DNA from: Oscillospiraceae bacterium
GTDB lineage: Bacteria; Bacillota; Clostridia; Oscillospirales; Acutalibacteraceae
Length of the DNA: 44,025 nucleotides
NCBI GenBank assembly: GCA_031271865.1
Contig: JAISUW010000033.1
Coordinates: 1 to 44,025, forward strand
Reading direction: 5' to 3'
Positions 1-35,505 of this stretch are shown here, in pieces. The notes beneath the pieces were generated by a model. It did no database searches, was not told where the DNA came from, and saw only the letters and a program-made list of their open reading frames with translations. The translations under genes and the position numbers were made by a program. Each line of letters starts with the position of its first letter. Within the stretch, counting starts at the first letter, position 1.

Positions 1-790
1 AACAAGGCCGCGGTAACAAAAAACAGGTACACGAGCACCCATCACAAACTAAAGCGCGAAAGCGGCAGCACCCCCACCTCCACCCCGCGAGGAGGCAACG
101 GGTGCCCTGAAGGGGCAAAGCGCCCTGAAGGGGCGGAGATGCCCTGAAGGGGCAATGCGCCGGGACGCAGAAGCGGGCGCCCTAAAAGGGGCGAAGATGC
201 CCTGAAGGGCCAATGCGCCCTGAAGGGGCGAGATGCCCTGAAGGGGCAAAGCGCCCTAAAGGGGCGGAGATGCCCTGAAGGGGCAATGCGCCGCGACGCA
301 GAAGCGGGCGCCCTAAAGGGGCGGAGATGCCCTGAAGGGGCAATGCGCCGGGACGCAGAAGCGGGCGCCCTGAAGGGGCGAGATGCCCTGAAGGGGCAAT
401 GCGCCACAACCGCCGCGAGATGCCCTGTAGGGGCAATTGCGCCAGTACGCAGAAGCGGGTGCCCTGAAGGGGCAAAGCGCCCTGAAAGGGGCGAGGTCCT
501 ATTGATAATCCTAAAAAGTAACATAAGGTAACAAAAAATATCCCCTACGCATCGCCCGTCACGTAACACGTAACACGTATCACGAGCACCCATCACAAAC
601 TAAAGCACGAAAGCGGCAGCACCCCCACCCCCACCCCGCGAGGAGGCACCGGGTGCCCTGAAGGGGCAAAGCGCCCTAAAGGGGCGGAGATGCCCTGAAG
701 GGGCAAAGCGCCCTGAAGGGGCGGAGATGCCCTGAAGGGGCAAAGCGCCCTGAAGGGGCGGAGATGCCCTGAAGGGGCAAAGCGCCTGGC
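1..790. repeat. Two-block array of short GC-rich palindromes with duplicated flanks
   Basis: About 23 copies of a palindromic core of the type GCCCTGAAGGGGC lie in two blocks, about 103-494 (16 copies) and 654-779 (7 copies). Copies alternate between a TGCCC...GGGCA form and a CGCCC...GGGCG form, so the outermost bases of the arms change together and pairing is kept. A few copies carry CCTAAAGGGG or CCTGTAGGGG centres. The spacing is about 18-19 bp, with a few longer linkers containing GCCGGGACGCAGAAGCGGGC-like sequence. Each block is preceded by the same roughly 73-bp sequence (30-102 and 581-653), so the whole unit was duplicated. Between the blocks (495-580) I see nothing recognisable. Open frames through the array are low-complexity translations of the repeat and I do not call them genes. 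Confidence 0.85.
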
Positions 791-847
791 TGCCAATATA
801 CCATAAGCCATAGCACCCGCAATCCCTTGACCATCTGCGCCAAGACC

Positions 848-1984
848 TTAGGTTCGGAAAATGCTTTCATACCACGCAACAAATTCCGACACATTCCAAT
901 AGATCAGTTCCCCCAGCCAACGGAAGAGGAAGAAGTCAGAGCGGATAATGGAGTCCAAGAAATCCGCTACTCCCGGGTCTTTAATGAACGCCCCGAAGTT
1001 GCCGGGTTCCGTGTCGGCGATGACCGCCACGGCATTGCCGTAGTCCCTGACCGGGACAAAGACGGCGCGTTCCTTGCCGAAGTCGCCCCAGTTGTTGGGG
1101 TAGTGGACGGACAGATACAGCTGCCCATCCGTGCCCGTGAAGAGCATCCCATGTCCGGCATCTTCTTCGATCTGGTAGCTGCGCTCATAGAGATGCCAAT
1201 TCTTATGCACCCAAGGACCCAAGATGTCACCGGATGCGGAGCGCGACTGCGCCACGACATAGCCGTTGTTTGTATAGCCGGACCAGAGCATCAGGAGTTC
1301 CCCGGTTTCCGAGCGGTAGAGGAACGGTCCCTCCGAGATGTGCGGGATGCCGCGGTAGAGGTCCTCATTGCCCAAGAGCTTGACAGGCTCACCCGCATAG
1401 CCGGTCAGGTCCGGCAGGAGTTTGACGGCTTTGATGCTCTCTATCTGCGACCACACGACCACCTCTTCGCAGTAGACCATCCACGGCTGCCCCTCCCGAT
1501 CCACATAGAAGGAGGAATCAATCCAAGGCGTGTCGGCGGGTGCCATGCCGTCGGGGGTGATTTCCGTGAAAGGACCCAAGGGGTTGTCGCCGCGCAGGAT
1601 GGTGCAGGTACTCAAGCCCACCGAGCGGCGGATATAAGTGGCAAATATATAGAAGTACCCATTATAGTAATGGCATTCGGGCGCCCAGTAGTTTCCGTTG
1701 GCATCGCTCCCGGCCGGCGGCGACCAGACGCGTACAGGACCGGCCCAGTTCTCCAAGTCCGTGGAAACGTAGCAGCCATAGCCGGGCGGTGCGCAGCCGG
1801 TGGCATACATGAAGTAGGTATCCTCATAGACCAAGATGAACGGATCGCGCACATTGATGTCCGCCCGGCTGCGCGTGGCGTTCATGTCCACCCGCGGGTC
1901 AGAGAAAGCCGCCGCGGCATGGCTCACCCCCATTGCGCCGGCGAATACGCAAAAGCAGAGAATCCAACAGAGCAGCTTTTTCAT
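848..1984 (-). CDS. Secreted glycoside hydrolase family 43 protein
   Basis: The 378-residue protein opens with a signal peptide (MKKLLCWILCFCVFAGAMG, likely cleaved near SHAAAA). A five-bladed propeller of the GH43 type follows. The expected catalytic carboxylates are visible: Asp47 in RDPF (general base), Asp156 in PWIDSS (pKa modulator) and Glu218 in ISEGPF (general acid). GH43 enzymes cleave arabinan, xylan or related plant side chains; the exact substrate cannot be told. The start at 1984 was chosen because GGGAGTG lies about 8 bases upstream and the signal peptide begins there, although the frame extends to 2062. The last 40 residues form an aromatic, hydrophobic tail (DFFLFRWLGELIYW...AWYESIFRT) outside the propeller, possibly a surface or membrane retention segment. 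It has its own promoter (2051-2079), separate from the beta-helix gene upstream. Confidence 0.85.
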   Translation of the reverse strand: MKKLLCWILCFCVFAGAMGVSHAAAAFSDPRVDMNATRSRADINVRDPFILVYEDTYFMYATGCAPPGYGCYVSTDLENWAGPVRVWSPPAGSDANGNYWAPECHYYNGYFYIFATYIRRSVGLSTCTILRGDNPLGPFTEITPDGMAPADTPWIDSSFYVDREGQPWMVYCEEVVVWSQIESIKAVKLLPDLTGYAGEPVKLLGNEDLYRGIPHISEGPFLYRSETGELLMLWSGYTNNGYVVAQSRSASGDILGPWVHKNWHLYERSYQIEEDAGHGMLFTGTDGQLYLSVHYPNNWGDFGKERAVFVPVRDYGNAVAVIADTEPGNFGAFIKDPGVADFLDSIIRSDFFLFRWLGELIYWNVSEFVAWYESIFRT

Positions 1985-2050
1985 CCCGAAACACTCCCAT
2001 GAATCAATTTGCGCCCAAGCAGCCGACAAAGACCGGCAGGCTATACTTAG

Positions 2051-2079
2051 AGTGTACACCATTTCGGCGGTATTGTCAA
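2051..2079 (-). promoter_or_regulatory. Sigma-A promoter of the GH43 gene
   Basis: On the minus strand, TTGACA (2074-2079) and TACACT (2051-2056) are separated by exactly 17 bases. The GH43 start codon is 66 bases downstream of the -10 box. The site lies between the GH43 gene and the beta-helix gene, so the two can be transcribed separately. Confidence 0.7.
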
Positions 2080-2090
2080 GTGCTTTTGGT

Positions 2091-3266
2091 TCAGTTTTCT
2101 TTGATCCGCACCCGGAGGCGGACGGCGCGCAAATCCATAAAGTACCCGGGAATTAACAGCTGATCCTGTTTTGTCTGCAAGCGGACAGCGTGCCTGTCAT
2201 CCAAGTCATCGTAGACAATGCAAGTGTTGCTGAGGTTCTTAAACACCGCCAGCGGGGCAGTCGGTGAGCAGTCGTCCAGGCGGTTGCGCAGAAAATTTTT
2301 CATGCGGAACTCGTGCAATCGGCTTTCCCCGACAACCAGCGGCTCTGTGTTTGCCGAATCTGTTTTATGGACAACCATATCGCGGAGTTCCACGTTTTCA
2401 ATCCAACCGACCCCGTCGGGTTCGTCCTCCTCACGGAAGAGGGGTGTGCGGCAGTAGCGCAGCGCATCCATATTGACGGCGTAGCGTCTGCAACCGCCGG
2501 TTACGTCCCGGATACTTATATTGCGGATAGCGGAATGCTTGCAGGTGGCCATGCGGATAAAGGACCAGCAGTCCTCCGCATGGATATGCTGAATGACCAC
2601 GTTCTCTATGTCCCCGCAGGAGAGGCCGTTGTTTTCATTGCGCCAATTGCAATCGTCAGCATTCAGGGCGATGAGGTCGTCGTTGGTTTGCTTCCCGGAA
2701 GCAGAGATGAACTCCACAAGGCCGTTCTTGACATTCCCGCCGAAGTGGATGCCGTCTTGGTTGGGGGTTTCCTGCCGGCTCGAAAACGAAATGCGCCGGA
2801 TTGAAAAGCCGTCAACATCCGAAAATGCAATGCCGTGGCTTTGGGCGTTCAGAATCCCTACGTCTTCTATCCTTAAGCCCTGCACATTCACAAAGCGCAT
2901 GGTGTTGCCGGAATAGCTTTCCGTATCGAACAAGTCCTTGCTTCTCTGCGTGCCGGGCGCCGTATTCTGCCTATCCCAGGAGCCTCCGATAATGGTGATA
3001 TTGCGGTTGCCGCCGGCCATATCCTTGTTGGAGAGCATGAAATCAGCGGCGGTGCGCGGCGTGTCGCCGTCAAAAACAAAATGCACACCGTCCCCGCATT
3101 GCAGCACTGTATCCGAACCGATTTTCAAACCGGCAACCAACCGATAGATACCCTCGGGCACGCTAACGACGCTCGCACCGGCATCCAGAGCTGCTTGGAC
3201 GGCAGGGCTGTCGTCGGCTTTACCGTCCCCGACGGCGCCATAATCACGGACGTTAACGGCGGTCAT
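2091..3266 (-). CDS. Right-handed beta-helix protein, GH28/pectate-lyase-3 type
   Basis: This 391-residue protein starts with VNVRDYGAVGDGKADDSPAVQAAL, the hallmark N-terminus of Pectate_lyase_3/GH28-like beta-helix enzymes. Repeated beta-helix rungs follow (NITIIGGSWD, LRIEDVGILNAQSHGIAFSD, VDGFSIRRISF, QDGIHFGG, NDDLIALNADD). The paired aspartates in QDGIHFGG and NDDLIALN match the positions of polygalacturonase catalytic and binding residues. No signal peptide is visible, so it may act in the cytoplasm on imported oligosaccharides, unlike the secreted GH43 next to it. The start at 3266 is preceded by AAGGAG at a good distance; the frame continues upstream without a better start. The C-terminal 90 residues (after ENVELRDMVV) look like a small beta domain. 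The family is clear; the substrate (polygalacturonate or another uronic-acid glycan) is inference. Confidence 0.8.
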   Translation of the reverse strand: MTAVNVRDYGAVGDGKADDSPAVQAALDAGASVVSVPEGIYRLVAGLKIGSDTVLQCGDGVHFVFDGDTPRTAADFMLSNKDMAGGNRNITIIGGSWDRQNTAPGTQRSKDLFDTESYSGNTMRFVNVQGLRIEDVGILNAQSHGIAFSDVDGFSIRRISFSSRQETPNQDGIHFGGNVKNGLVEFISASGKQTNDDLIALNADDCNWRNENNGLSCGDIENVVIQHIHAEDCWSFIRMATCKHSAIRNISIRDVTGGCRRYAVNMDALRYCRTPLFREEDEPDGVGWIENVELRDMVVHKTDSANTEPLVVGESRLHEFRMKNFLRNRLDDCSPTAPLAVFKNLSNTCIVYDDLDDRHAVRLQTKQDQLLIPGYFMDLRAVRLRVRIKEN

Positions 3267-3303
3267 ATAATATCTCCTTATCAGCAGTGTATTCGTCCCA
3301 CTT

Positions 3304-3332
3304 ATTGTAGCACAAACCGCGGAAGAATGCAA
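3304..3332 (-). promoter_or_regulatory. Sigma-A promoter of the beta-helix gene
   Basis: On the minus strand, TTGCAT (3327-3332) and TACAAT (3304-3309) are 17 bases apart, about 40 bases upstream of the start codon at 3266. An extended TGC precedes the -10 box. Confidence 0.7.
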
Positions 3333-3383
3333 GGCAAATACAGCGGCACTGCAAGGTGATTCAAAATATTTTAGCATTACCTC

Positions 3384-3412
3384 TTGCAATTTTGATTCGG
3401 TTGTGGTAAAAT
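3384..3412 (+). promoter_or_regulatory. Sigma-A promoter of the rplS operon
   Basis: TTGCAA (3384-3389) and TAAAAT (3407-3412) are separated by 17 bases. The promoter is divergent from that of the beta-helix gene and would give a leader of about 115 bases before rplS. Confidence 0.7.
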
Positions 3413-3417
3413 ATACA

Positions 3418-3535
3418 AGTGTGCCCCTGCCAAGGGGGAAGCGTTTGGGCTGACAACTTCCGTTCCTCTGCGTTCCCTGCCATACACCCGAGAGCGGCGC
3501 CATGAACGGTCGAATATACATTCAGGAGAGATTCC
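3418..3535 (+). promoter_or_regulatory. Structured 5' leader of rplS, possible L19 autoregulatory leader
   Basis: The predicted rplS leader is about 115 nt and can form at least two hairpins. One pairs CCCCT with AGGGG around GCCA (near 3423-3436). The other pairs GGAAG with CTTCC (near 3437-3462). Firmicutes often control rplS through an L19-binding leader, so the position fits. I cannot confirm a match to a known leader family by eye. Confidence 0.35.
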
Positions 3536-3964
3536 ATGAGCAAGGTCATCAAAACCCTCAAGCAATCCGATGTTGCTGCCCGCATTGAAAAAGGCAGCAT
3601 GGGCAACCCGAACTCCGCGGAAGCCGCCCTTCTGCGCGTGGCGCAGTCCTCCCTCAAGGAGGCACCGCCGGAGATCGTCATCGGTTCCTACGTGAAGGTA
3701 CACGTCAAAATCCGCGAAGGCGAGCGCGAGCGTATCCAGGTATTTGAAGGTACGGTCATTGCACGCCGCGGCAGCGGAATCAGCGAAACCTTCACCGTCC
3801 GCCGCCTAAGCTACGGTGTCGGTGTGGAGCGTGTGTTCCCCGTGCATTCCCCCAATGTGGCGAAGGTCGAAATCGTGCGTCTGGGCCAAGTGCGCCGCGC
3901 CAAACTGTACTATCTGCGCGGCCGTGTCGGTAAGGCTGCCAAGGTCAAAGAGAAGCTGGCATAA
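3536..3964 (+). CDS. rplS: 50S ribosomal protein L19
   Basis: L19 sits at the 30S/50S interface of the ribosome. The conserved core is unmistakable: [22 protein letters not shown], then [26 protein letters not shown], and [21 protein letters not shown] at the C-terminus. The protein has 142 residues against about 115 in Bacillus; the extra length is an N-terminal stretch of about 25 residues ([20 protein letters not shown]...). The start at 3536 has a good AGGAGA about 6 bases upstream, so the extension seems real, although an ATG at 3599 would give a shorter form. It is the first gene of an operon with two signal peptidases and rbgA, a common Firmicutes arrangement linking ribosome assembly and secretion. 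Confidence 0.97.
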
Positions 3965-3979
3965 GCAAAGCAATCTCCT

Positions 3980-4002
3980 GCGGGAGGGGTTCACCCTCCC
4001 GC
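3980..4002 (+). terminator. Strong hairpin between rplS and lepB, attenuator-like
   Basis: GCGGGAGGG (3980-3988) pairs perfectly with CCCTCCCGC (3994-4002) around the loop GTTCA. No T-run follows, so it is more likely a processing or partial-attenuation element that keeps rplS expression above that of the genes downstream than a full terminator. Confidence 0.45.
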
Positions 4003-5248: not shown

Positions 5249-5249
5249 G

Positions 5250-6200
5250 ATGAAACGTAAGCCGGAGCGCGGCGGCCGTAATACGGCCGCAACAGATGGC
5301 CGTAATACGGCCATCCCCGAGGGCGGCCGTAATACGGCCGCTGCCCCCCCCCTGCAATGGTTTCCGGGGCACATGGCGAAGACGCGGCGCCTGATGCAGG
5401 AGCATCTTTCCTTGGTAGACGGCGTTGTAGAACTGCGGGATGCCCGGGCGCCGGAGAGCAGTGCCAACCCGGAGTTGCCGAAGTGGACAGGGGAGAAGCC
5501 GCGGATACTATTGCTGAACAAGCGGGACTTAGCCGAGGCTGACGCAACCCGGGCATGGGCCCAGCGGCTGCGGGCGCAAGGGGCGCACGTACTCATCTGC
5601 GACTGCAAGACGGGCAAGGGATTACAGGACTTTCTGCCGACAGTAAAGAAAGCGCTCGCCCCGGTGATAGAGAAGAACGCCTCGAAGGGAATGCCGGGCA
5701 AGCCATTGCGTCTGATGGTTGTCGGCATACCGAACACAGGCAAATCCAGTTTCATCAACCGCATGGCGAAGCAAAGCAAGGCTGCGGCTGCGGACCGACC
5801 GGGAGTCACGCGCCGCCTGACGTGGTTCTCCTTGGGGAAGATCAACGGGATTCCTTTGGAGCTGCTGGACACACCGGGTGTCCTCTGGCCGAAGTTGGAG
5901 GACCAAGCTGCGGCACAGCGCTTGGCATTCTTGGGTTCGATCCGGGACGAAGTGATGGACACGGAGCATCTGGCATGCCTTTTGCTTAGGTTTCTGCAGG
6001 AAGGCTATACCGACAGGCTCCGGGAACGCTATACGCTCACGGACACCGGCGGCGAGCCGTATAACCTTTTGGCGGCTATAGGCAAAGGCCGCGGGATGCT
6101 CCTCCCCGGCGGGGAGACGGACACCCTGCGCGCCGCGAACGCCCTTTTGGATGATTTCCGCGGCGGCAAACTGGGATCCATTACGCTCGAAAGGGCTTGA
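5250..6200 (+). CDS. rbgA: Ribosome biogenesis GTPase RbgA (YlqF) with a repeat-built N-terminus
   Basis: RbgA is a circularly permuted GTPase that acts late in 50S subunit assembly. The motifs appear in permuted order: G4 NKRD (residues 90-93), G1 GIPNTGKSS (159-167) and G3 DTPG (207-210), after the conserved QWFPGHMAK start region (36-44). Bacillus RbgA begins almost at QWFPGHMAK, so about 35 extra residues are present here. They are encoded by three copies of the palindrome GGCCGTAATACGGCC (translated GRNTAA-like) and a run of Cs. No in-frame start codon exists between 5250 and the conserved region apart from rare non-ATG options, so the extension is probably translated. Length 316 residues against about 282. 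Last member of the rplS-lepB-lepB-rbgA group; the next gene starts 8 bases downstream. Confidence 0.93.
   Translation: MKRKPERGGRNTAATDGRNTAIPEGGRNTAAAPPLQWFPGHMAKTRRLMQEHLSLVDGVVELRDARAPESSANPELPKWTGEKPRILLLNKRDLAEADATRAWAQRLRAQGAHVLICDCKTGKGLQDFLPTVKKALAPVIEKNASKGMPGKPLRLMVVGIPNTGKSSFINRMAKQSKAAAADRPGVTRRLTWFSLGKINGIPLELLDTPGVLWPKLEDQAAAQRLAFLGSIRDEVMDTEHLACLLLRFLQEGYTDRLRERYTLTDTGGEPYNLLAAIGKGRGMLLPGGETDTLRAANALLDDFRGGKLGSITLERA
5272..5341. repeat. Three in-frame copies of a GGCCGTAATACGGCC palindrome inside rbgA
   Basis: Copies lie at 5274-5288, 5298-5312 and 5325-5339. Their flanking bases extend the palindrome and differ in step: GC...GC, AT...AT and GC...GC. The distances between copies are 24 and 27 bases, both multiples of three, so the reading frame of rbgA is kept. 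Confidence 0.9.
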
Positions 6201-8951: not shown

Positions 8952-9122
8952 AGGATTACGTAGTTTCTTCAGCTAATAGAAATGATAGTATATTAAGGAT
9001 TCAGAATGCGGATGGTCGAAAAAGCGAGGGTGAATCCGAAAACAGTCCCGATATATCCGACAGGATTGAAGGTGTATCGCTTGCACACTACCATTATGCG
9101 TGGCTGAATAAACTACATAGTC
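8952..9122. mobile_element. MITE-like element, copy 1
   Basis: A noncoding element of about 171 bp with imperfect terminal inverted repeats. The left end is AGGATTACGTAGTTTCTTCAG and the right end reads GCTGAATAAACTACATAGTC. It shares an internal GGGTGAATCCGAAAACAGTCCC segment type with the other copies. It lies just after spoIIGA. Confidence 0.8.
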
Positions 9123-9290
9123 ATATTATGCCGGTGGCGGCAATGGTGGATTCAGGTGGTTGGGGGCAGTTGGACGTAGCTGACAGTAGGATTACGTAAT
9201 GCGTGGCTGAATAAACTACATAGTCATATTATGCCGGTGGCGGCGATGGTGGATTCAGGTGGTTGGGGGCAGTTGAAGGTAGCTGACAGT
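9123..9290. repeat. Duplicated 65-bp spacer enclosing an internally deleted MITE
   Basis: A 65-bp sequence starting ATATTATGCCGGTGGCGGC occurs at 9123-9187 and again at 9226-9290 with only a few differences. Between the copies is a 38-bp MITE remnant (9188-9225) consisting of the outer end AGGATTACGTA joined to the other end GTGGCTGAATAAACTACATA. The structure suggests a tandem duplication of spacer plus element followed by an internal deletion. Confidence 0.8.
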
Positions 9291-9463
9291 AGGATTACGT
9301 AGTTTCTTCAGCTAATAGAAATGATAGTATATTAAGGATTCAGAATCCGGATGGTCGAAAAAGCGAGGGTGATTCCGAAAACAGTCCCGATATATCCGAC
9401 AGGATTGAAGGTGTATCGCTTGCACACTACCATTATGCGTGGCTGAATAAACTACATAGTCCT
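9291..9463. mobile_element. MITE-like element, copy 2
   Basis: A 173-bp copy almost identical to the one at 8952-9122, in the same orientation, ending CTACATAGTCCT. It is one arm of the nested duplication. Confidence 0.8.
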
Positions 9464-14590: not shown

Positions 14591-16417
14591 ATGCCCCAGA
14601 ATTACGGTTATCCATGCTACAATTGCAGTAATTTTGAGAATTGCTGCAGCGAAAGTTTTGAAAGGCCGCCGTGCCGACAGAACTGCTGTCCAAGCTGTCC
14701 GCAGGACGGCAGTTATATCTACTTAGGGAGCGGAGCTAACCGCCGCCGTGCCGTTCGAGTGGAACAGCAAAAAGCAATGGAAGCCCGGAATCGGCAGCGG
14801 CAGCAACGGCAGCACCCGCAGCCGGCCACACCGCCGGAACCGACTTACATCCGACCGACAGGCAACCGTGTGCGCCGCAGCGAAACAACCTGTGCTGCAG
14901 AGGATGCAACAGAAACCGATACGGAAGAAATCGCCGAAGTAGTTGAAGAGACGATTGCAGCAGAAGCTGTCTGCGAGGAAGTTACGGATACCATAACAGT
15001 AGAAGCTGTCTGTGAGGAAGTCACGGAAACCACTACAGCAGAAGCTGTCTGTGAAGAAGTTGTTGCGATTGCCGAAACAGCGGAGGAATCCGTAACCGAG
15101 GTCTATGAGGATACGGCATACGGCTCACCAAATTGTTATGTCCCCATCATGAGTGCGTCGAGCCCTGTGGAAGAGGCGGTCGTGGAAGAGATTACAGAAA
15201 CAATCACGGCGCAGGTGACCGAAGAGATAACGGCAGTCTTGACAGAAACCGTGGCAGAAACAGCCGCGGAGTGTACGGACAGCCGGAATACCTATACAGT
15301 ATACGAGACAGGTGTGTTGACGGAAGCGGAGCCATGTGCTTCTTGCTCCCAGGTAGTAACAGAGCTGATACCCGGACCGCCGGGCCGCCCGGGAAGAGAT
15401 GGTGCGGTTGGTCCGACCGGTCCGCAGGGGGATTTGGGGCCGACAGGACCGGAAGGCGCAGTAGGGCCGACCGGTCCGCAAGGTCCGCAAGGAGAACCCG
15501 GACCTGCCAGTCTGCGCGGCGCAGTAGGTGCGACCGGACCGCAAGGAGCGATAGGTCCCACCGGTGCGCAAGGGGAACCCGGGCCTATCGGACCTATGGG
15601 AATGATCGGACCGCAGGGTCCGCAGGGAGAACCCGGTCCGCAAGGTCCGGAGGGACTCCCCGGTCCGCAAGGCCCGCAAGGTGTACCGGGGCCGCAGGGA
15701 GAAGCCGGTCTTCCGGGACCTGCAGGACCGCAAGGGGTTCCCGGTCCGCAGGGCGATAGAGGCGAAAAAGGTGACGTCGGTCCTACCGGTGTGCAAGGGG
15801 TGCGCGGCCCGAAAGGCGATCCGGGGCAAGCAGGGCCCGCCGGAGAACGCGGCCGTCCGGGTATCCAAGGGCAGCAAGGGCAAGCCGGTCCCGTCGGACC
15901 TATGGGGCCTCCCGGAGCACGCGGGGAACGCGGCGCAGAAGGCCGTGTCGGACCGACAGGCGCTACCGGACCTTCCGGACCTCCCGGACCGCCCGGAGCA
16001 GCAGGCAGTGTCGTCTATGCCCACGCCGGCATCATCGGTGCCTTGCGCGATGACTTCACGGAGAGTGTCGGCTTTATGCGTTACTTCTCCAAAGCTACCG
16101 TCAGCGCAGGTATGGAAGCAGATGACGGCGACCAGCGCTTGCTCGTTTATGAGAACGGAACCTATATCGTTCACTATAGTTTCTCCTACTTGAATGCCTG
16201 CGATTGCGCGGTTTCGGTTGTGCTCAACGGTAACCGGGTGCTGGATGGTTCCGCTTTGTTGCTGAAAGGCAAAAACGGCGATACCTTGAGCGTCAACAAG
16301 ACTACCTTGACCACCTTGAACGCCGGCGATGAACTCAAGCTGTTTGTTTCCTCTAATGGCGCTCCATTCCGTTGGCGGCAGGATACCCTGAGTTTCCATA
16401 TTCTGAAAGTCGGTTGA
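14591..16417 (+). CDS. Collagen-like protein 1 with a C-terminal jelly-roll-type domain (exosporium-like)
   Basis: The 608-residue protein has four parts. Residues 1-45 are Cys-rich ([14 protein letters not shown]...CCPSCP). Residues about 90-255 are a Glu/Thr/Val-rich stalk with three 13-residue repeats [13 protein letters not shown] (39-bp DNA period, from 14963). Residues about 260-472 are about 71 uninterrupted Gly-X-Y triplets rich in GPTGPQG. The final 134 residues ([17 protein letters not shown] to FHILKVG) resemble the C-terminal trimeric domain of BclA-like exosporium glycoproteins. No signal peptide is visible, which fits a mother-cell-made spore-surface protein. The start follows GAGAGGTGAG. 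The gene is bracketed by inverted MITE copies. The spore-surface role is inference from architecture; other cell-surface roles remain possible. Confidence 0.88.
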
Positions 16418-19745: not shown

Positions 19746-20900
19746 CTACTCCAAAGTGTTGTAATAGCTTATCGGAAATACGTGGGAGCCGCAGCGGATA
19801 CTGTCTTTTGTATACGTCCAGCCATCGCCGAAATCATCGGCTTTGATGATTTCTCCCGGGTACTTGTCCTTTTGGGCATAGCCCCACTCGTAGCCCATTT
19901 TGATTTTTTCCTCTGCGCATGTCAGGGTGTCTATCGCAAAACTCGTAATTGTTACCGCACGCTTAAAGTGTAATTCGTGCCCATACTCCAGTATTTCCAT
20001 CGGCAATGCGGCAGGAAGCACATCGATGCGCGGGTTGTCCTTGAACTCTTCCTTATAGTCGTAGCGATCCCGTGGGTGCGGTTTGATGACGATATGCAGT
20101 CCGGTTCCATGCGTTTCCATCAGTTCACGCATTACGCCGATTTGTCCCTCTAATGTTGCTACGCCGAAGTCACTCACCGGTTGGGTGAGGAGAAGCATTG
20201 CTTCCTCTTCCTCCGGGAGGCGCAGCTGTATTTCAGCTGTAAAAGCGCTGTAGAGGAGTTCCTTGTGTTCCGGCGGCAAATTCCGAATGGCTACCTTGGA
20301 GTCCCAGATACGGATTTTGTGCCGGGGAATATGCAGCATGGCTGCATCTGATACCTCCACCGACTTGCAGTAAAAGCTCTTGCCGAACTTGTAAATCGGC
20401 TCCGTCCAATAGAAAAGCAGTTTCTGCTTCCGTGTGCGTTGATAGTAGTTTCCCCAAAAGTTGTAAGCGGAATATTGCCAATTCCAGTAAACCGCATCTT
20501 CCAATACATGATACTTTCGCCGTTCACAGCGAAGCCAACAGGGAAAGGCATTGGAATCAACGAATAAATAGACCTTACGAAAGCGTTTTAAATCCAACTG
20601 CGGCCCCAGAATCGGACGCAAAAGACCTTTGAAGTACCGCGCATAGTTCCGGCTCCAATGCGCTGTGCCGGTGTACCATTTCTCAATCTTGTGGTACTGT
20701 AAATGCGAAATATTCCGAAGCAGCTTTACTTCTCCGAACAGCCCGGTGCGCCGCAGAGCGGCGGTAATCTCCTCTGCATGGGCGGCATGGCTGAATACGG
20801 CAACCGTCGGCGGAACTGCGGCATGCAATGCCTTTATACACACGACCAGCGCTTGGATAAAGCTCAGTACATAGTATAAATCCGGTTTCTTCCGCTTCAT
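19746..20900 (-). CDS. Glycosyltransferase of the GT52/polysialyltransferase type
   Basis: The 384-residue protein shows the pattern of polysialyl- and sialyltransferase families GT52/GT38: an N-terminal Rossmann half, LEDAVYWNW in the middle, LLTQPVSDFGVATLEGQI, and the conserved IKPHPRDRYDYKEEF followed by VLPAALPMEIL. The HP motif binds CMP in these families. No signal peptide or membrane helix is clear, so it is probably cytoplasmic or membrane-associated. It is coupled to dus upstream (ATGA overlap) and ends 9 bases before the CMP-sugar synthetase. Together they suggest transfer of Kdo or a sialic-acid-like sugar to a capsule, teichoic acid or spore glycan. Similarity is motif-level only, so the exact family is tentative. 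Confidence 0.75.
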   Translation of the reverse strand: MKRKKPDLYYVLSFIQALVVCIKALHAAVPPTVAVFSHAAHAEEITAALRRTGLFGEVKLLRNISHLQYHKIEKWYTGTAHWSRNYARYFKGLLRPILGPQLDLKRFRKVYLFVDSNAFPCWLRCERRKYHVLEDAVYWNWQYSAYNFWGNYYQRTRKQKLLFYWTEPIYKFGKSFYCKSVEVSDAAMLHIPRHKIRIWDSKVAIRNLPPEHKELLYSAFTAEIQLRLPEEEEAMLLLTQPVSDFGVATLEGQIGVMRELMETHGTGLHIVIKPHPRDRYDYKEEFKDNPRIDVLPAALPMEILEYGHELHFKRAVTITSFAIDTLTCAEEKIKMGYEWGYAQKDKYPGEIIKADDFGDGWTYTKDSIRCGSHVFPISYYNTLE

Positions 20901-21862
20901 GCTTCCGCCTCCCACCAGGAGAGCAGTTTCGCTGCAATGGCTTCCAGGTCGGGTATCCGCATTGCGGATACGATTTCCCGCCGCAGTGCGGCGGCCCCCC
21001 GCACACCTTTGGTATACCAAGCCGCGTGTTTCCGTGCCTCCCGCATACCGATATACTCCCCTTTATACAGGCACAGTCTGCGGGTATGCTCCAGCATGAG
21101 TTCCATACGTTCCCGCAAAGACGGCGCAATGCTCCCGTCTTCCCGGAACGCCCACGGTCTGCCCTGCGCGCCGCGGCCGATCATGACGGCATCGCAACCG
21201 GTTGCCTCCAACAAATAGGCAGCATTGCCGCTGTCTTGCACATCTCCGTTGGCGATGACAGGAATCTGTACAGCCTGTTTCACTGCAGAAATTGAATCAA
21301 TGTCCACCGGCGGGGCAAACATTTGCTGTTTGTGCCTGCCGTGAATGGTGACAAACGCTGCCCCCGCTGCTTCGCAGCGTTTTGCGATTTCCGGGGCGGT
21401 GATGTGTTCGGCATCCCAACCGGTACGGAGTTTGACGCTGAGCGGTATGTTTCCGGCGGCTTTGCCGGCGAGCAGTACCATGCGTTCACATTTCATAGGC
21501 TCTTTCAGGAGCGCGGAGCCGGCCCCGCCGTGGGTTATTTTCGGTGCCGGGCAGCCCATATTGATGTCTATAAAGGCAGGAGGAAGGGAATCCTCTATTC
21601 CTTCTGCGAGCAGTTTGCGTACGGCATCGGCAACGGTTTCCGGGCTGTCACCGAAGAACTGCACGCCCATAGGTGCTTCCGCGGGTGTAATGCGCAAGAG
21701 TTTGGCGGAGGTTTTGTCACCGAGGATATACCCCTTTGCGGAAACCATCTCCGATACGCAGAACGCCGCTCCGGATGCCATGCACAACTCCCGCATGGCG
21801 CGGTCCGCCACGCCGGCCATCGGTGCGAGGGAAGGTTTGCCGCGCCGGATAAAATCAAGCAA
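20897..21862 (-). CDS. dus: tRNA-dihydrouridine synthase
   Basis: Dus enzymes are FMN-dependent and reduce uridines in the tRNA D-loop. Visible motifs are LAPMAGVADRAMREL, MGVQFFGDSPE, DINMGCPAPKITHGGAGSALL (catalytic Cys in GCP), SVKLRTGWD, VTIHGRHKQQMF and PVIANGDVQD with IGRGAQGRPW. The start is probably the TTG at 21862 (giving MLDFIRRGKPSLAPMAG): it follows AAAGGGGGG at 6-7 bases and overlaps the end of the histidine phosphatase gene. Earlier in-frame codons would run far into that gene. Length 321 residues, normal for the family. The 3' end overlaps the GT52-like start by four bases. Confidence 0.92.
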   Translation of the reverse strand: MLDFIRRGKPSLAPMAGVADRAMRELCMASGAAFCVSEMVSAKGYILGDKTSAKLLRITPAEAPMGVQFFGDSPETVADAVRKLLAEGIEDSLPPAFIDINMGCPAPKITHGGAGSALLKEPMKCERMVLLAGKAAGNIPLSVKLRTGWDAEHITAPEIAKRCEAAGAAFVTIHGRHKQQMFAPPVDIDSISAVKQAVQIPVIANGDVQDSGNAAYLLEATGCDAVMIGRGAQGRPWAFREDGSIAPSLRERMELMLEHTRRLCLYKGEYIGMREARKHAAWYTKGVRGAAALRREIVSAMRIPDLEAIAAKLLSWWEAEA

Positions 21863-28583: not shown

Positions 28584-29768
28584 ATGCGCTTGGAAAAACG
28601 TATCTTCCTCTCCCCGCCCGACCTTACCGGCAAAGAAATCGATTTCCTCAGGGAAGCCCTCGATACCAATTGGGTCGCGCCCGCAGGCCCGCATATCGCG
28701 GCATTTGAGCTGGAGCTTTGTTCCACGTTATGCGGCTACGCCGCACCGTGCGGCTACGCCGCATCATGCGGCTACGCCGCACCGTGCGGCGTAGCCGCAC
28801 ATGCTTGCGCGCTGTCATCCGGGACAGCCGCCCTCCACTTGACGCTGTTAGAGCTTGGTGTGGGGGATGGGGACACGGTCTTTGTCAGTGACCTCACATT
28901 TGCCGGGAGCGTAAATCCCATCTTGTACTGCGGGGCAACGCCTGTGTTCATAGACGCGGCGCCGGACGGCTGCAACATGGATCCGGCGGCGCTGGAACGG
29001 GCATTTGCAACCCAACCCCGCCCCAAAGCCGTGGTTATCGTTGATTTGTACGGTATCCCCGCCGACTATGACCGCTTGCTGCCCTTGTGCGCGTCGCACG
29101 GTGTTCCGGTTATAGAGGATGCGGCGGAGGCTCTGGGCGCAACGTACAAAGGAAAGTCCTGCGGGCTGTTCGGGGCGTTTGGCGTGTTTTCTTTCAACGG
29201 CAACAAGATTATTACCACCTCCGGCGGCGGGATGGCGGTAGCGGCTGATGCGGACGCTATACGGCACATCAACTTCCGCGCCAACCAAGCCAAAGAGCCT
29301 GCACCCTACTACCTGCACAAAGAGTTGGGCTACAATTACCGTATGTCAAATCTGCTGGCAGGCGTGGGGCGCGCACAGCTGGCGAGCTTGCCGGACAAAA
29401 TTGCCCGCCGCAAGGCTATATATGAACGCTACCGAGCGGCTTTCGCCGACCTGCCGCTCACGCTGCTGCCGATTCCGGCGGGGTGTGCGCCGAACTATTG
29501 GCTGAGTGTCGCGGTACTGTCGCCCGAAGCACCGCTGTCGGCCGCCGCGCTCACCGAGCAGCTGGAAGGGGATAATATAGAAGCACGGCGCATCTGGAAT
29601 CCCATGCACCGGCAGCCTGTATTCGCTGATTATCCCCGTATCATCGCCGGGCGTGCGTCAAACGCAGACGAGCTGTTCGAGAACGGTATCTGTCTGCCCT
29701 CCGGTTCCTCCCTCACAGAGGAGGAGCAAGGGGAGATTATTTCGCGTGTATGTGACCGGCTGTCCTGA
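28584..29768 (+). CDS. DegT/DnrJ/EryC1-type PLP aminotransferase with a palindrome-encoded insert
   Basis: These enzymes transaminate keto-sugars for surface glycans. Visible motifs are FLSPPDLTGKEIDFLREAL, NWVAPAGPHIAAFE, SSGTAALHLTLLELGVGDGD, VIVDLYGIPADYD, VIEDAAEALGA and the PLP lysine in SFNGNKIITTSGGGM. Most of the 394 residues fit the family. Between ELCSTL and AHACALSSGTAA lies an insert of about 22 residues (CGYAAPCGYAASCGYAAP...) encoded by four 18-bp units of the palindrome TGCGGCTACGCCGCA. In relatives these flanks join directly (ELA.Y.G..HAVALSSGTAA), so the insert is probably recent and tolerated because it keeps the frame. The start at 28584 has GAGGT 8 bases upstream. The stop is 4 bases from the convergent S41 gene stop. 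Confidence 0.9.
   Translation: MRLEKRIFLSPPDLTGKEIDFLREALDTNWVAPAGPHIAAFELELCSTLCGYAAPCGYAASCGYAAPCGVAAHACALSSGTAALHLTLLELGVGDGDTVFVSDLTFAGSVNPILYCGATPVFIDAAPDGCNMDPAALERAFATQPRPKAVVIVDLYGIPADYDRLLPLCASHGVPVIEDAAEALGATYKGKSCGLFGAFGVFSFNGNKIITTSGGGMAVAADADAIRHINFRANQAKEPAPYYLHKELGYNYRMSNLLAGVGRAQLASLPDKIARRKAIYERYRAAFADLPLTLLPIPAGCAPNYWLSVAVLSPEAPLSAAALTEQLEGDNIEARRIWNPMHRQPVFADYPRIIAGRASNADELFENGICLPSGSSLTEEEQGEIISRVCDRLS
28731..28799. repeat. Four in-frame TGCGGCTACGCCGCA palindromes inside the aminotransferase gene
   Basis: Copies at 28731-28745, 28749-28763, 28767-28781 and 28785-28799 have an exact 18-bp period (15-bp palindrome plus CCG, TCA, CCG spacers). The fourth copy has the centre inverted (GTA for TAC). 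Confidence 0.92.
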
Positions 29769-32187: not shown

Positions 32188-32309
32188 GATGGAATCCATC
32201 CTCTCAATAATACGGATTTCAGTTCGTATGGGACGATTCGGCAAATTGCACAAAGCCGTTGTATTGTTCTCAATTCGCACAAAAGGCTCGTCCGACAACC
32301 TTTGTATAT

Positions 32310-32338
32310 ATTGTACACCTTTTCTGCACAAATTGCAA
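32310..32338 (-). promoter_or_regulatory. Sigma-A promoter of the CdaR-type regulator
   Basis: On the minus strand, TTGCAA (32333-32338) and TACAAT (32310-32315) are 17 bases apart. The rest of the gap between the two genes (32339-32563) is AT-rich and holds nothing I can name. Confidence 0.7.
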
Positions 32339-32563
32339 GGGTTCTTCGTCAATTTTCTGCGCCGCGCATGAAAAATCTGCCCAAATTGGTCTAAGTTAGA
32401 ATAGAATCGCTTATATATTCGGCAAATTGCTTAAAAATACCTGTGGAAAACTGTTCAAATTGCCATTGTGAAAAATGCCGAATCAGCTGCTGCATGAGTT
32501 GAATTGAGGTGGGAGCAACCAAACCAATCCGTAAGGAGCGCGAAGCAGGAAGCCTTTTCCGGC

Positions 32564-33778
32564 TCAGAGGCTCGCGGCAAAGGCGGCACCGAACGCCGCG
32601 GCGGCTTGCAAGTCTTCCGGTGCCGGGACGAAGTTCACCTTAAACGGTTCCCCGAATACTTTACATTTGAGCTGTTCCAAGCGGCCTTGCAGATTGCCGC
32701 AGGCTTCCCCGCTCCAACCGTAGGAGCCGAAAAGCGCGGCAGGGCGTTTGGCAATATTTACGCAATCGGCGTGGGCAAGCAAATACCACAGCGGCGGCAC
32801 GGCATCGCGGTTAATGGTCGGGCTGCCCAGCAGGAAAGCAGTGCTTGCGTTGAGCTTTGCGGCGGCGGCGGCGTAGTCCGTATCCAAGTCCAGCTCGTAC
32901 AGGGAAGCCTCCGCTTCGGGAAGCGCTTGCCGTATGCCCGCCTGGATTGCTTCGGCAATCTGTTTGGTATTCCCATAGGCTGCGGCATAGAAAATCGGTA
33001 TGCGCAGCACGGCATCGGCAGGCAAGGGTGCGCTCCATGACCGATAGCATTCCACGGCGGCTTCGAGAAGCCTCCCTTTGGTCAGGACAAGGCCATGGGA
33101 GGGGCAGATGTACAGCAAATCTCCGAGCAGCGGCGAGAGCTTCTGCAGGCCTTTGCCTGCAAAGGACTTGAATGGGCTGACGATGCAGTCAAAATAGTAT
33201 TTCATGGCATCCAAGTAGGCACCGCCGTCGGCGGCGGCGGAAGCCGTATCGAGTACCTTTGTGTCGCAGAAATGCGCTCCGAACACATCGCAGGAGAAGA
33301 GTGCTTTCTCCTCGGGGCAGTAGGTCATCATCGTATCCGGCCAGTGGAGAAACGGCGCAATGAAAAAGCGCAGGGAGACATCCCCCAGTTCCAGTACATC
33401 GCCGTCTTTGATGATGCGGAGCTTGAGGTCAGCTTTGTTTGTAATCTGTGCCAAATACTTGGCGGCGACGGCGTTGGTGACAATCACCATCTCCGGATAG
33501 GCGGCGGTCAAGGCGGCAATGTCGCCGGCGTGGTCGGGTTCCGTGTGGTTGACGATGAGGAAATCGGGGGCTTTGCCGCCCAAGGCTTCTGTGATTTCGT
33601 CCGTTTGCCGGGACAGAAAGTCCGTGTGGGCACCGTCGATGAGGGCTGCTTTCTCGGTGCCTTGCACAACATAGCTGTTGTAACTCGTACCGTTTGCTGT
33701 GCGCATTACCACATCAAAGATGCGCAGGTTTGGGTTGAAGACGCAGGTGAATTGGATGCGCTTTGTCAGTTGAAGCAT
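32564..33778 (-). CDS. fprA: Flavodiiron protein (FprA-type)
   Basis: Flavodiiron proteins reduce O2 or NO in anaerobes. The 404-residue protein has the beta-lactamase-like diiron domain with all ligands: His78, Glu80, Asp82 and His83 in NHTEPDHAGD, His145 in FLHWPD, Asp164 in FSCDVFGAH and His228 in CPSHGLVL. A flavodoxin domain starts near 257 (IPIFYAAAYGNTKQIAEAI) with FGSYGWSGEACGNL. The start has AAGGAG 6 bases upstream. It is the last gene of the pyruvyltransferase-hisI-ADH-fprA run, 20 bases after the ADH gene. No rubredoxin is present nearby as a donor. Confidence 0.95.
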   Translation of the reverse strand: MLQLTKRIQFTCVFNPNLRIFDVVMRTANGTSYNSYVVQGTEKAALIDGAHTDFLSRQTDEITEALGGKAPDFLIVNHTEPDHAGDIAALTAAYPEMVIVTNAVAAKYLAQITNKADLKLRIIKDGDVLELGDVSLRFFIAPFLHWPDTMMTYCPEEKALFSCDVFGAHFCDTKVLDTASAAADGGAYLDAMKYYFDCIVSPFKSFAGKGLQKLSPLLGDLLYICPSHGLVLTKGRLLEAAVECYRSWSAPLPADAVLRIPIFYAAAYGNTKQIAEAIQAGIRQALPEAEASLYELDLDTDYAAAAAKLNASTAFLLGSPTINRDAVPPLWYLLAHADCVNIAKRPAALFGSYGWSGEACGNLQGRLEQLKCKVFGEPFKVNFVPAPEDLQAAAAFGAAFAASL

Positions 33779-33798
33779 GATTTCTCCTTACAGCATAA

Positions 33799-35007
33799 TC
33801 AGGCGCACGATTGCAGGATAGCCAAAGTATCCTGCCAGTTGAGCCGCAGGAAAGAGCCATTGCCGAATTCCTTGGCGGTATCGGCGCCGGTAGACTTTTT
33901 GGCCATCTCCTCCAAGCGGTCGGCGGGAATCCCCAGTTCGGAGAGGGCAGACGGCAATCCCAAAGACTCCCAGAATGCCGCGAGCTTATCGATGGCTTGC
34001 ATTACAGCCGCGTCCGGGTCGGTAATCTCCGCCGGGACATCCATTATATTATGCGCAAACTGCACAAGCTTCCGGCGTCGGAAGATACGGGCGCCGTCCC
34101 GGTCGCAGCGGTACACATAGCGCAGCCACGCCGGACAGATGACGGCCAAACCCGCTCCGTGTGCCACGTCATAGATGGCGGAGAGTTCGTGCTCTATGTG
34201 GTGGCTCGCCCAGTCCTGCGCTCTGCCGACACCGACCAGGTTATTGTGCGCCAAGGCTCCTGCAAAGCCTATCTCGGCGGCGGCATTGTAATTGCCGGGG
34301 TTCTTCACAAAAGCGGGGGCGTTCTTCATGATGGCTTTCAGCAGACCTTCGCACAGCGCATCGGTGACATCGGTGTTCTCCGTGCGGGTGAAGTATCGCT
34401 CGAAGATGTGCATCATCATGTCTGCAACCCCATTGGCGGCTTGGTGCTGCGGGAGCGTGGCATACAGTTCCGGGTTGATGACGCTCACGACCGGCCGGAT
34501 GCACTCCTCGCTGTGACCGTATTTGCGCAGGGTGTCCGCATTGGAGATGACAGAGGAGTCGCTCATCTCGCTCCCCGCGGCAGGGATGGTGCAAACGGTA
34601 GCGACAGGCAGGGCTTTGCCGGCAACCGTATGCTTTTGTTTGTCATATATATCCCAGACGTCGCCGTCATACAGGACGCCCATGGCTATCGCCTTGGCAC
34701 TGTCAATCGCAGATCCGCCGCCGATTGCCAGAATCAGCTCCGCGCCGAATCCCCTTGCCAACGCTATGCCCTCCCGCACCAAGGTCACGCGAGGGTTCGG
34801 CTGTACGCCGCCCAGTTCGGTAAAGGCTATCCCCGCTTTGTTCAGCGATGCCGCGACACGGTCATACAGTCCGCTGCGCTTCACGCTCCCGCCGCCGTAG
34901 TGGAGCAGTACCTTGCCGGCATACGGCCGGATGTGCTCTCCGATAGCATTCTCTTCCCCCCGACCGAGATATAACTTCGTGGGGAGGTTTAGGAAAAGAT
35001 TCAGCAT
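33799..35007 (-). CDS. Iron-containing alcohol dehydrogenase (butanol-dehydrogenase type)
   Basis: The 402-residue enzyme reduces aldehydes to alcohols with NAD(P)H. Family features are the nucleotide loop GGGSAIDSAKAIAMG, TIPAAGSEMSDSSVISN, and the Fe-ligand regions GVADMMMHIFERYF and HHIEHELSAIYDVAHGAGLAVICPAW. It resembles BdhA-type enzymes (LPTKLYLGRGEE at the start). The start at 35007 follows AAGGAG. Longer readings into upstream palindromes (to 35061) are not needed. Together with fprA next door, it may help dispose of reducing power or respond to oxidative stress. Confidence 0.93.
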   Translation of the reverse strand: MLNLFLNLPTKLYLGRGEENAIGEHIRPYAGKVLLHYGGGSVKRSGLYDRVAASLNKAGIAFTELGGVQPNPRVTLVREGIALARGFGAELILAIGGGSAIDSAKAIAMGVLYDGDVWDIYDKQKHTVAGKALPVATVCTIPAAGSEMSDSSVISNADTLRKYGHSEECIRPVVSVINPELYATLPQHQAANGVADMMMHIFERYFTRTENTDVTDALCEGLLKAIMKNAPAFVKNPGNYNAAAEIGFAGALAHNNLVGVGRAQDWASHHIEHELSAIYDVAHGAGLAVICPAWLRYVYRCDRDGARIFRRRKLVQFAHNIMDVPAEITDPDAAVMQAIDKLAAFWESLGLPSALSELGIPADRLEEMAKKSTGADTAKEFGNGSFLRLNWQDTLAILQSCA

Positions 35008-35026
35008 GGTTGGCTCCTTGAAAGGG

Positions 35027-35078
35027 TGCCCCGTAGGGGCATTAATGCCCCGTAGGGGCACTGAGCCCCGTAGGGGCT
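35027..35078. repeat. Three CCCCGTAGGGG palindromes between hisI and the ADH gene
   Basis: Copies TGCCCCGTAGGGGCA (35027-35041 and 35046-35060) and AGCCCCGTAGGGGCT (35064-35078) have 18- to 19-bp spacing. The outer base pair is T-A in two copies and A-T in the third, so the arms stay complementary. They fill most of the 78-bp gap between the two genes. Confidence 0.9.
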
Positions 35079-35085
35079 TTCGCGC

Positions 35086-35505
35086 TCATTCCTCGCCGGG
35101 AATAAAAGCAAGCGTATCGGCATCCTGCGTAATAACCCGGTAGAAGCAAGTGGTGCGGCATTCGCCGTTGTTTTTTTTCGTATGGCAGATACCGCCTTTA
35201 TTCGGGCGGACGAAAGCCAAGATGGAGTTCTGCTCACAGTTCACACGTGCTTCAATGAATTGAAATGTGTTGCCGCTCTCGTCTGCACCTTTGTGCCAAA
35301 GTCGGTTGCGGGAGGTGGACCAGAGGTACAGCTCGCCGGTCTGCCAAGTCTTGACCAAAGCTTCTCGGTTAGCATAGGCTAACAGCAAGACTTCTTTTGT
35401 GTCGTAGTCTTGGATGATGACAGGGACGACGCCTTGCCCGGCGACTTTGTCAATTTTGTCATAATCCAAACTTAGGCGCATGGATTGTGTTACATCGTGG
35501 GTCAT
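35086..35505 (-). CDS. hisI: Phosphoribosyl-AMP cyclohydrolase-like protein (HisI), NCEQN variant
   Basis: HisI opens the purine ring of PR-AMP in histidine synthesis. The 139-residue protein fits the fold: PVIIQDYDTKEVLLLAYANREAL, TGELYLWSTSRNRLWHKG and the zinc cysteines in NCEQN, GGICHTK and TTCFYR. The usual metal motif DCDxD reads NCEQN, so the Mg-binding aspartates are replaced. I recall stand-alone HisI proteins with this NCEQN pattern in other anaerobes, so it may be a natural subfamily, not decay. No other his gene is nearby. The start at 35505 has GAAGGAG upstream. The activity is uncertain. Confidence 0.8.
   Translation of the reverse strand: MTHDVTQSMRLSLDYDKIDKVAGQGVVPVIIQDYDTKEVLLLAYANREALVKTWQTGELYLWSTSRNRLWHKGADESGNTFQFIEARVNCEQNSILAFVRPNKGGICHTKKNNGECRTTCFYRVITQDADTLAFIPGEE

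What the first reader, a model, noticed from the sequence alone, without database searches (positions are those of the whole stretch)
1..35086. Locus-specific clusters of 15-bp palindromes with covarying arms
Four clusters share one design and not one sequence: GCCCTGAAGGGGC (about 103-779), GGCCGTAATACGGCC (5272-5341), TGCGGCTACGCCGCA (28731-28799) and CCCCGTAGGGG (35027-35078). Each is a GC-rich palindrome of about 15 bp with a short centre, repeated every 18-27 bp. Within clusters, the outer arm bases change together (T-A, C-G, A-T, GC-GC, AT-AT), so complementarity is maintained. This points to selection for, or a generating mechanism that needs, a hairpin or dyad and not a fixed sequence. 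A process that seeds and expands palindromes at many sites, with the sequence differing per site, does not match any family I know. Rickettsia palindromic elements are the nearest analogue for in-gene palindromes, but they are longer and share sequence.
Basis: partly seen in the sequence, partly recalled or inferred. Interest (0 to 1): 0.8.

Follow-up and report, generated by a model that had tools for sequence, protein, structure and literature searches.

The report
Short hairpin repeats with covarying stems
The clusters are very short DNA hairpins found in more than a hundred copies across this bacterium's genome, even inside genes; their loop and inner stem stay nearly constant while the outer stem varies in matching pairs, and they are probably spread by a small transposase that would read the loop and the pairing.

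Summary
The clusters are real, but they are not "one sequence per locus". Three of the four belong to one 15-bp family (loop GTA or GAA; stems such as TGCCCC, TGCCCT, TGCGGC). The fourth (5272-5341) belongs to a 19-bp family with loop AAT. A fifth pair lies at 20953-20994. Both families recur genome-wide: CCGCAWTGCGG 128 copies (reversed control 1), GCCCYGWAGGGGC 107 (control 1); same-genus relatives have far fewer. In the 1.08 Mb sampled, 90 of 177 perfect 8-bp-stem triloop hairpins have loop AAT/ATT, on 43 stems (74 of 90 share inner CCGC/CCGT). Stem changes are compensated. Units sit a few bp after stop codons or inside genes, in frame. The one IS200-like (Y1) gene found, a divergent REP-associated transposase (RAYT), is flanked by nine AAT-loop hairpins; 14 of 46 RAYT loci, all in relatives, have GTAG-tagged hairpins, the classical REP design. 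Published biochemistry of such enzymes (loop read, intact stem needed, bottom-stem pairs exchangeable) would explain the covarying arms. I file the AAT family as an untagged REP/REPIN variant. The GTA family is alike in design, but no enzyme was found. Not settled: whether some units arose in place (DusB, CarB).

The parts
103..492 (+). GTA/GAA-loop hairpin array, mostly 15-bp units [T/C]GCCCTGAAGGGGC[A/G] at 18-19 bp, interleaved with other repeats and degenerate copies
654..779 (+). second GTA/GAA-loop array, after a near-copy of the segment that precedes the first array
5272..5341 (+). three AAT-loop units (GCGGCCGTAATACGGCCGC etc.) read in frame at the N-terminus of the YlqF/RbgA GTPase gene
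5250..6200 (+). YlqF/RbgA-type GTPase gene; 34 residues precede the part that aligns with B. subtilis YlqF (from its residue 3)
20953..20994 (-). AAT-loop unit plus a second palindrome with loop ACT, centres about 24 bp apart, in a DusB-like gene; relatives show no length change there
20897..21820 (-). DusB-like gene (name from recall, not from a call); relatives' orthologues align over nearly its whole length
28731..28799 (.). four GTA-loop units at 18 bp, in frame: three TGCGGC-TAC-GCCGCA (GTA on the minus strand) and one TGCGGC-GTA-GCCGCA
28584..29768 (+). DegT/DnrJ/EryC1 aminotransferase gene holding the array; the ten best relatives' loci all lack 17-20 residues there
35027..35078 (+). 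three GTA-loop units (outer pairs T/A, T/A, A/T) between two minus-strand genes, 7 bp after the stop of the PRA-CH gene and 19 bp before the start of the Fe-ADH gene

Best explanation
The clusters are arrays of REP-like DNA hairpins of two families, told apart by a nearly constant three-base loop (AAT, or GTA/GAA) and inner stem while outer stem bases vary in matching pairs, and they are likely spread as single-stranded DNA by a RAYT-type transposase that would recognise the loop and the intact pairing, not the outer stem sequence. Shown: loop constancy, fixed unit length (19 and 15 bp), compensated stem changes, genome-wide copies, placement after stop codons and in frame inside genes, and one divergent RAYT gene flanked by nine AAT-loop hairpins. 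Inferred: that this RAYT moves the AAT family, and that arms covary because copies with a broken stem are not moved or kept. Only by analogy: that the GTA/GAA family, whose enzyme was not found, works the same way.
For: Loop: 90 of 177 perfect 8-bp-stem triloop hairpins carry AAT/ATT, next class 14; 43 distinct stems, 74 of 90 with inner CCGC or CCGT. Fixed length: pairing 87-94% at the four outer positions and 9% at the fifth (n=67); 97% then 11% for CCCCGTAGGGG (n=35). Compensation: among AAT-loop hairpins with three paired outer positions and one changed core pair, 31 of 32 stay paired. Arrangement: adjacent AAT pairs are -+ 22, ++ 18, -- 7, +- 1. RAYT: the one PF01797 match of the genome; best NCBIfam match REP-associated tyrosine transposase, E 3.4e-7; H66, H68 and Y123 invariant in 22 sequences; predicted fold: 28 PDB chains at E<=0.001, all IS200/IS605-type or REP transposases, including E. 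coli RAYT bound to REP (4er8); six AAT-loop hairpins before and three after the gene. Of 888 called genes one has AAT hairpins within 250 bp on both sides; the RAYT gene, which my caller missed, would be the second. Relatives: GTAG- or CTAC-tagged hairpins within 250 bp of 14 of 46 RAYT loci (own locus included, not among the 14) against 3 and 5 of 46 in control windows. Biochemistry: for S. maltophilia TnpA-REP, loop changes and a mid-stem mismatch nearly abolish cleavage, complement swaps in the three bottom stem positions improve it and swaps higher up matter moderately; the Marinomonas enzyme behaves similarly (PMC8266576, sections read).
Against: AAT units have no GTAG tag at the foot; the S. 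maltophilia enzyme needs it for cleavage, while in Marinomonas altered tags changed the cut site. The RAYT scores below NCBIfam's cut-off (30.2 against 80 bits) and just under Pfam's (22.8 against 23; 23.5 with neighbours). No strain pair was found, so movement was not seen. The GTA family has no known transposase. Two relatives' RAYTs with CGTA-n-TACG hairpins (L086, L093) show no clear amplification of that core: G001 21 and G011 20 against 3-20 in the other ten same-genus relatives searched. A test for matching stems on both sides of RAYT genes was weak (9 of 46 against 0 and 4 of 46). In DusB the units cause no length change.
Confidence: 0.65

Rival explanations
1. The hairpins are host RNA or DNA signals (mRNA 3'-end protection, transcription or translation control) kept by selection at gene ends; the RAYT neighbourhood is incidental.
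For: Distances to facing 3' gene ends: AAT 21 of 31 within 0-17 bp, GTA 13 of 15 within -10 to 7 bp; no AAT (0 of 25) or GTA (0 of 13) cluster lies in a divergent gap, although 102 of 661 gaps are divergent. GTA-family units in co-directional gaps are antisense 28, sense 6, though by cluster (coding ones included) the bias is 18:9, p 0.12.
Against: Units also lie inside recD2, scfB, carB, rsmG and degT genes; they are nearly absent from same-genus relatives, although orthologues of degT, carB, scfB, gatA and the DusB-like gene were found there; nine hairpins flank the one RAYT.
Confidence: 0.15
2. Units are made in place by template-switch or hairpin-templated repair that turns near-palindromes into perfect ones, without any mobile element.
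For: DusB: 18 of 18 relatives align without gaps over unit 2, and 16 of them span both units. CarB: unit 1 lies on the ungapped LARITG stretch, and the 66-bp array adds only 7 residues relative to 7 of 12 same-genus loci (the other five differ by 2, 6, 32, 33 and 33).
Against: The same loops and inner stems recur at dozens of loci, which a sequence-blind process would not give; DegT (10 of 10) and ScfB (12 of 13 same-genus loci) are longer than in relatives. The DusB pair could be chance: relatives' loci show 7 clusters of any kind per 622 kb.
Confidence: 0.12
3. Intrinsic terminators or other ordinary gene-end hairpins.
For: Position after stop codons.
Against: Only 2 of 67 multi-unit clusters have TTTT within 12 nt after, or AAAA within 12 nt before; tandem, inverted and in-gene copies; no Rfam family at gathering score in the window.
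Confidence: 0.02

Closest known systems
GTAG-tagged REP families and REPtrons with RAYT/TnpA-REP (PMC2817692, abstract seen; PMC3733652 and PMC8266576, parts read)
   Same: Short-loop hairpins, compensated stem variants, inverted pairs and clusters, 3' gene-end position, in-gene copies encoding extra residues, a RAYT flanked by its own hairpins
   Different: No GTAG or CGTC tag at the foot; outer stems highly variable (43 stems in 90 units, though 74 share inner CCGC/CCGT); host is an Oscillospiraceae-like Bacillota genome
REPIN (paired REPs; PMC3116915, listing and start of abstract seen)
   Same: AAT units sit in inverted order (- before +) with centre spacing of mostly 24-25 bp
   Different: The spacer between the two hairpins and the outer stem differ from copy to copy
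Untagged REP-like families (named for M. tuberculosis, D. radiodurans, Bordetellae, Brucellae and Cyanobacteria in PMC3733652, passage seen)
   Same: No terminal tag
   Different: Here a flanking RAYT gene is present for the AAT family; whether those families have one was not checked
REP-like sequences tallied in Bacillota by RepRanger (PMC12306157, two passages seen)
   Same: REP-like palindromes counted in B. subtilis, Acetivibrio clariflavus and Fervidicola ferrireducens
   Different: The word RAYT does not occur in that text; its sequences were not compared with these
Rickettsia palindromic elements (recalled; RPE-4, RPE-6 and RPE-1 mentioned in PMC3733652)
   Same: In-frame palindromes inside unrelated genes
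   Different: Shorter units, arrays, triloop hairpins, a RAYT in the genome

Membership tests
REP/RAYT (REPtron), AAT-loop family | RAYT gene flanked by cognate hairpins | tested here: met
   Nine AAT-loop hairpins around the one Y1 gene found; cognate in place, not shown biochemically
REP/RAYT (REPtron), AAT-loop family | HUH transposase with HxH and catalytic Tyr | tested here: met
   Invariant H66, H68, Y123 in 22 sequences; fold matches IS608 and 4er8; Y---N context as in class 2, but NA, not NP
REP/RAYT (REPtron), AAT-loop family | GTAG or CGTC tag unpaired at the foot | tested here: not met
   No such tetranucleotide beside 60 + 21 units; some flank positions are C-rich (C in 43 of 60 at +1, 44 of 60 at -7)
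REP/RAYT (REPtron), AAT-loop family | High copy number linked to presence of the RAYT | tested here: met
   128 CCGCAWTGCGG in G000 against 1-15 in 13 same-genus genomes and 0-17 in 26 others; nearest RAYT homologue in those genomes is 40% identical. One genome only
REP/RAYT (REPtron), AAT-loop family | Inverted pairs or clusters | tested here: met
   -+ 22, ++ 18, -- 7, +- 1
REP/RAYT (REPtron), AAT-loop family | Cleavage of the single-stranded hairpin by the cognate enzyme | not testable with these tools
   Needs purified protein
REP/RAYT, GTA/GAA-loop family | RAYT flanked by its hairpins | tested here: not met
   The one Y1 gene found in a 93.8% complete genome is flanked by AAT units; 0 of 33 sampled GTA clusters lie within 300 bp of an AAT unit
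REP/RAYT, GTA/GAA-loop family | GTAG tag at the foot | tested here: not met
   GTAG lies at loop and closing pair; outer pairs match around the GTA centre, and pairing fails beyond (97% then 11%)
Rickettsia palindromic element | Shared long palindromic sequence (recalled) | tested here: not met
   Units of 15 or 19 bp with varied stems
Intrinsic terminator | T-tract after the hairpin | tested here: not met
   2 of 67 multi-unit clusters

The most novel reading that the evidence does not exclude
The genome runs a hairpin-printing system: single-stranded hairpins released by a RAYT (and by an unknown enzyme for the GTA/GAA family) are copied onto native DNA at replication forks, so that units overwrite existing codons as well as insert. 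That would explain copy-specific outer arms, retained pairing, in-frame arrays in housekeeping genes, and the units that cause no length change in DusB and CarB.
Probability: 0.13. Interest if true: 0.85.

Novelty: new variant of a known kind. Interest (0 to 1): 0.52.

Why it matters
GTAG and CGTC REPs are described mainly from Proteobacteria (PMC3733652, abstract). Here a Bacillota genome has an untagged REP-like family beside its RAYT, with a constant loop and freely varying outer stem, plus a second family without a known enzyme. It makes "what does a RAYT read?" testable: the genome offers dozens of natural stem swaps on one loop. The in-frame arrays in recD2, scfB, carB, rsmG and degT suggest that conserved enzymes tolerate hairpin-coded peptides, a natural source of protein insertions.

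Tried and rejected
Four independent local inventions: rejected, since cores recur genome-wide and clusters 1, 3 and 4 share loop, length and outer pairs. Head-to-tail GTAG-REP reading of the GTA arrays (GTAG + GGGC-spacer-GCCC): rejected, because outer pairs match around GTA and mostly fail beyond. Intrinsic terminators: rejected. Known RNA families: none at gathering threshold in the window. Orientation of GTA units against gene strand: by cluster 18 antisense, 9 sense, p 0.12; nothing firm. Amplification of CGTANTACG in relatives with RAYT-flanking CGTA hairpins: not clear. Identical stems on both sides of RAYT genes: weak, 9 of 46 loci against 0 and 4 of 46 in two control windows. A strain carrying or lacking the DegT insert: none among the 120 listed hits, nearest non-self protein 62% identical; I did not read those sequences one by one. 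GNA-triloop stability as an explanation of the GTA loop: recalled only; the energy model gives both strands equal or nearly equal energy and the literature search listed no direct paper. GCCCCGAAGGGGC in G006 (27 copies): the one locus read (L119) has other flanks, so I did not count it as this family. DNA uptake sequences were considered from memory and not tested.
Full report
What was checked. The window is the whole contig C24 of a 2,397,091-base, 70-contig, 93.8% complete genome. The nearest named non-self proteins of its DegT are from Oscillospiraceae metagenome-assembled genomes. All four clusters are present as described. Sixteen exact GCCCTGAAGGGGC copies lie between 104 and 778.

Not locus-specific. 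I sampled 61 pieces of the genome (1,076,033 b; 15 of the first 20 stretches come from contigs with hits). The most frequent hairpin 11-mers are CCGCAATGCGG (68), CCCCGTAGGGG (35) and CCGTAATACGG (24). Searched by structure, 15-mers with loop GTA/GAA have stems TGCCCC, TGCCCT, AGCCCC, CGCCCT, TGCGGC, TGCCGC and rarer ones, so window clusters 1, 3 and 4 are one family. Cluster 2 belongs to the AAT-loop family. In the whole genome CCGCAWTGCGG has 128 copies against 1 for the reversed control, 1-15 in 13 same-genus genomes and 0-17 in 26 others. GCCCYGWAGGGGC has 107 against 1; twelve of the 13 same-genus genomes have 0-8 and one (G006) has 27, all GCCCCGAAGGGGC, with other flanks in the one locus read.

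What is constant and what varies. For CCGCAATGCGG (n=67) the four pairs outside the core are complementary in 94, 91, 93 and 87% (expected from column composition 40, 39, 39, 70%), and the fifth in 9% (expected 28%): the unit is 19 bp. For CCCCGTAGGGG (n=35) the outer pair is complementary in 97% (55% expected) and the next in 11% (41% expected): a 15-bp unit. Of all perfect hairpins with an 8-bp stem and a 3-base loop, 90 of 177 have loop AAT/ATT; the next loop class has 14. In relatives' loci, some of them fetched for CCGCAWTGCGG itself, it is 11 of 108. The 90 have 43 different stems; 74 share inner CCGC or CCGT and a few others look like chance. Where one core pair differs and three outer positions pair, 31 of 32 remain paired. 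Permutation controls and their limits are in the observation check. GGAGCAATGCTCC, GCAGCAATGCTGC and TTCGCGAA hairpins are further repeats of this genome; the last does not pass the distinct-arm permutation test.

Where they sit. Of intergenic AAT clusters 19 lie between co-directional genes, 6 between convergent and 0 between divergent ones; for GTA 11, 2 and 0 (all gaps of 20 bp or more: 475, 84, 102). Distances to facing gene ends are under 10 bp in 17 of 31 AAT and 13 of 15 GTA cases. Gene calls are from a home-made caller. Only 2 of 67 multi-unit clusters have a T-tract.

In genes, in frame. Units lie in genes for RecD2, GatA, the SCIFF maturase ScfB, RsmG (cut by the stretch end) and CarB (fused to DapF), and in genes matching RihA-like hydrolases, PgfM-like glycosyltransferases and DnaJ below the family cut-offs; also in the window's DegT and YlqF genes. 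Adjacent AAT units are a multiple of 3 bp apart in 12 of 13 coding cases and 17 of 39 intergenic ones (Fisher p 0.003); GTA units use 18-bp spacing, not 19, in 12 of 14 coding and 11 of 33 intergenic cases (p 0.0013). DegT: the ten best relatives' loci all lack 17-20 residues there. CarB: of 12 same-genus loci seven lack 7 residues, three lack 32-33, and two divergent copies differ by 2 and 6. ScfB: 12 of 13 same-genus loci are shorter in this stretch, by 4-29 residues; one (G003) is longer by 6. RsmG and RecD2 show extra residues against solved homologues, GatA and CarB do not. YlqF has 34 residues before the start of the B. subtilis alignment.

Against simple insertion. In the DusB-like gene, 18 of 18 relatives align without a gap (two alignments end before unit 1 is spanned), and unit 2 encodes A-A-A-L-R-R where relatives read, for example, A-A-A-L-R-G or A-A-R-L-R-A. 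In CarB, unit 1 lies on the ungapped LARITG stretch, where relatives read LARISG, LKEITG and the like. GatA shows no net gain against L258 and L262 and up to 5 residues against others. Chance is not excluded for the DusB pair: relatives' loci show 7 clusters of any kind per 622 kb.

The enzyme. One Y1_Tnp match was found in the genome: C56:7777-8298, 174 codons. Its best NCBIfam match is REP-associated tyrosine transposase (NF047646, E 3.4e-7, 30.2 bits, cut-off 80). In an alignment of 22 sequences H66, H68 and Y123 are invariant. Its AlphaFold model (mean pLDDT 84, pTM 0.72) matches 28 PDB chains at E<=0.001, all transposases of the IS200/IS605 or REP kind, among them E. coli RAYT with REP DNA, 4er8 (TM 0.52). 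By sequence alone no solved relative was found. Six AAT-loop hairpins precede and three follow the gene. Three other proteins passed a word-limited search of 5.8 billion (29-35% identity), while 74 of 300 genomes of the family, own included, have a homologue. Around 46 RAYT loci (best-scoring loci only; own included), 14 have a GTAG- or CTAC-tagged hairpin within 250 bp against 3 and 5 in control windows, with stems differing from locus to locus.

How it likely works. Corneloup et al. (PMC8266576; abstract and sections 17 and 20 read) report for S. maltophilia TnpA-REP that loop changes and a mid-stem mismatch nearly abolish cleavage, that complement swaps in the three bottom stem positions improve it, and that swaps in the central and upper stem have a moderate effect; Marinomonas is similar. 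That is the pattern found here: loop constant, inner stem mostly kept, outer stem free but paired. The step from this analogy to the present RAYT is inferred. The missing GTAG tag is the main point against it, since the S. maltophilia enzyme needs it for cleavage; in Marinomonas altered tags changed the cut site. For the GTA/GAA family no enzyme was found.

Known or new. Compensated stems, clusters, gene-end positions and in-gene REPs are described by Di Nocera et al. (PMC3733652; abstract, Results part 1, section 16 and passages read), who also name untagged families; the word Firmicutes does not occur in that text. A 2025 tool paper tallies REP-like sequences in three Bacillota species (PMC12306157, two passages seen). 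My searches listed no paper on REP/RAYT systems of Oscillospiraceae; only listed titles and abstract starts were seen, and the library is incomplete. I therefore call it a new variant of a known kind.

Noticed in passing
window 527, 42253; 43 places in the 1.08 Mb sample: Another dispersed repeat, GGTAACAAAAAAT, mostly as a hairpin such as GTTACAATCGGTAAC followed by A6 and TATCC or TGCACC, sometimes in tandem with periods of about 80-110 bp.
   Followed up: partly
L043 1-112, L057 17822-17966, L062 2-142, L066 7861, L068 43, L104 64 and 10025, L116 60: GGTTCGCGAACC / GGGGCTTCGCGAAGCCCC hairpins often lie at contig ends, so they may be part of a longer repeat that breaks assembly.
   Followed up: no
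window 31-102 and 582-653: Near-identical segments precede both GCCCTGAAGGGGC arrays; the contig starts inside this repeat region.
   Followed up: no
window 9096-9301: Two head-to-tail copies of a 103-bp unit, 97% matches.
   Followed up: no
window 15413-15696 and 37651-38298: 27-, 18- and 9-bp repeats that look like collagen-type Gly-X-Y coding repeats (reading from recall).
   Followed up: no
L105 8659-12735: carB and dapF form one open frame; 9 of 12 same-genus relatives' loci have open frames of 1307-1362 codons there too.
   Followed up: partly
G000:C70:43046-43141: A second place in the genome encodes a peptide like the ScfB insert.
   Followed up: no
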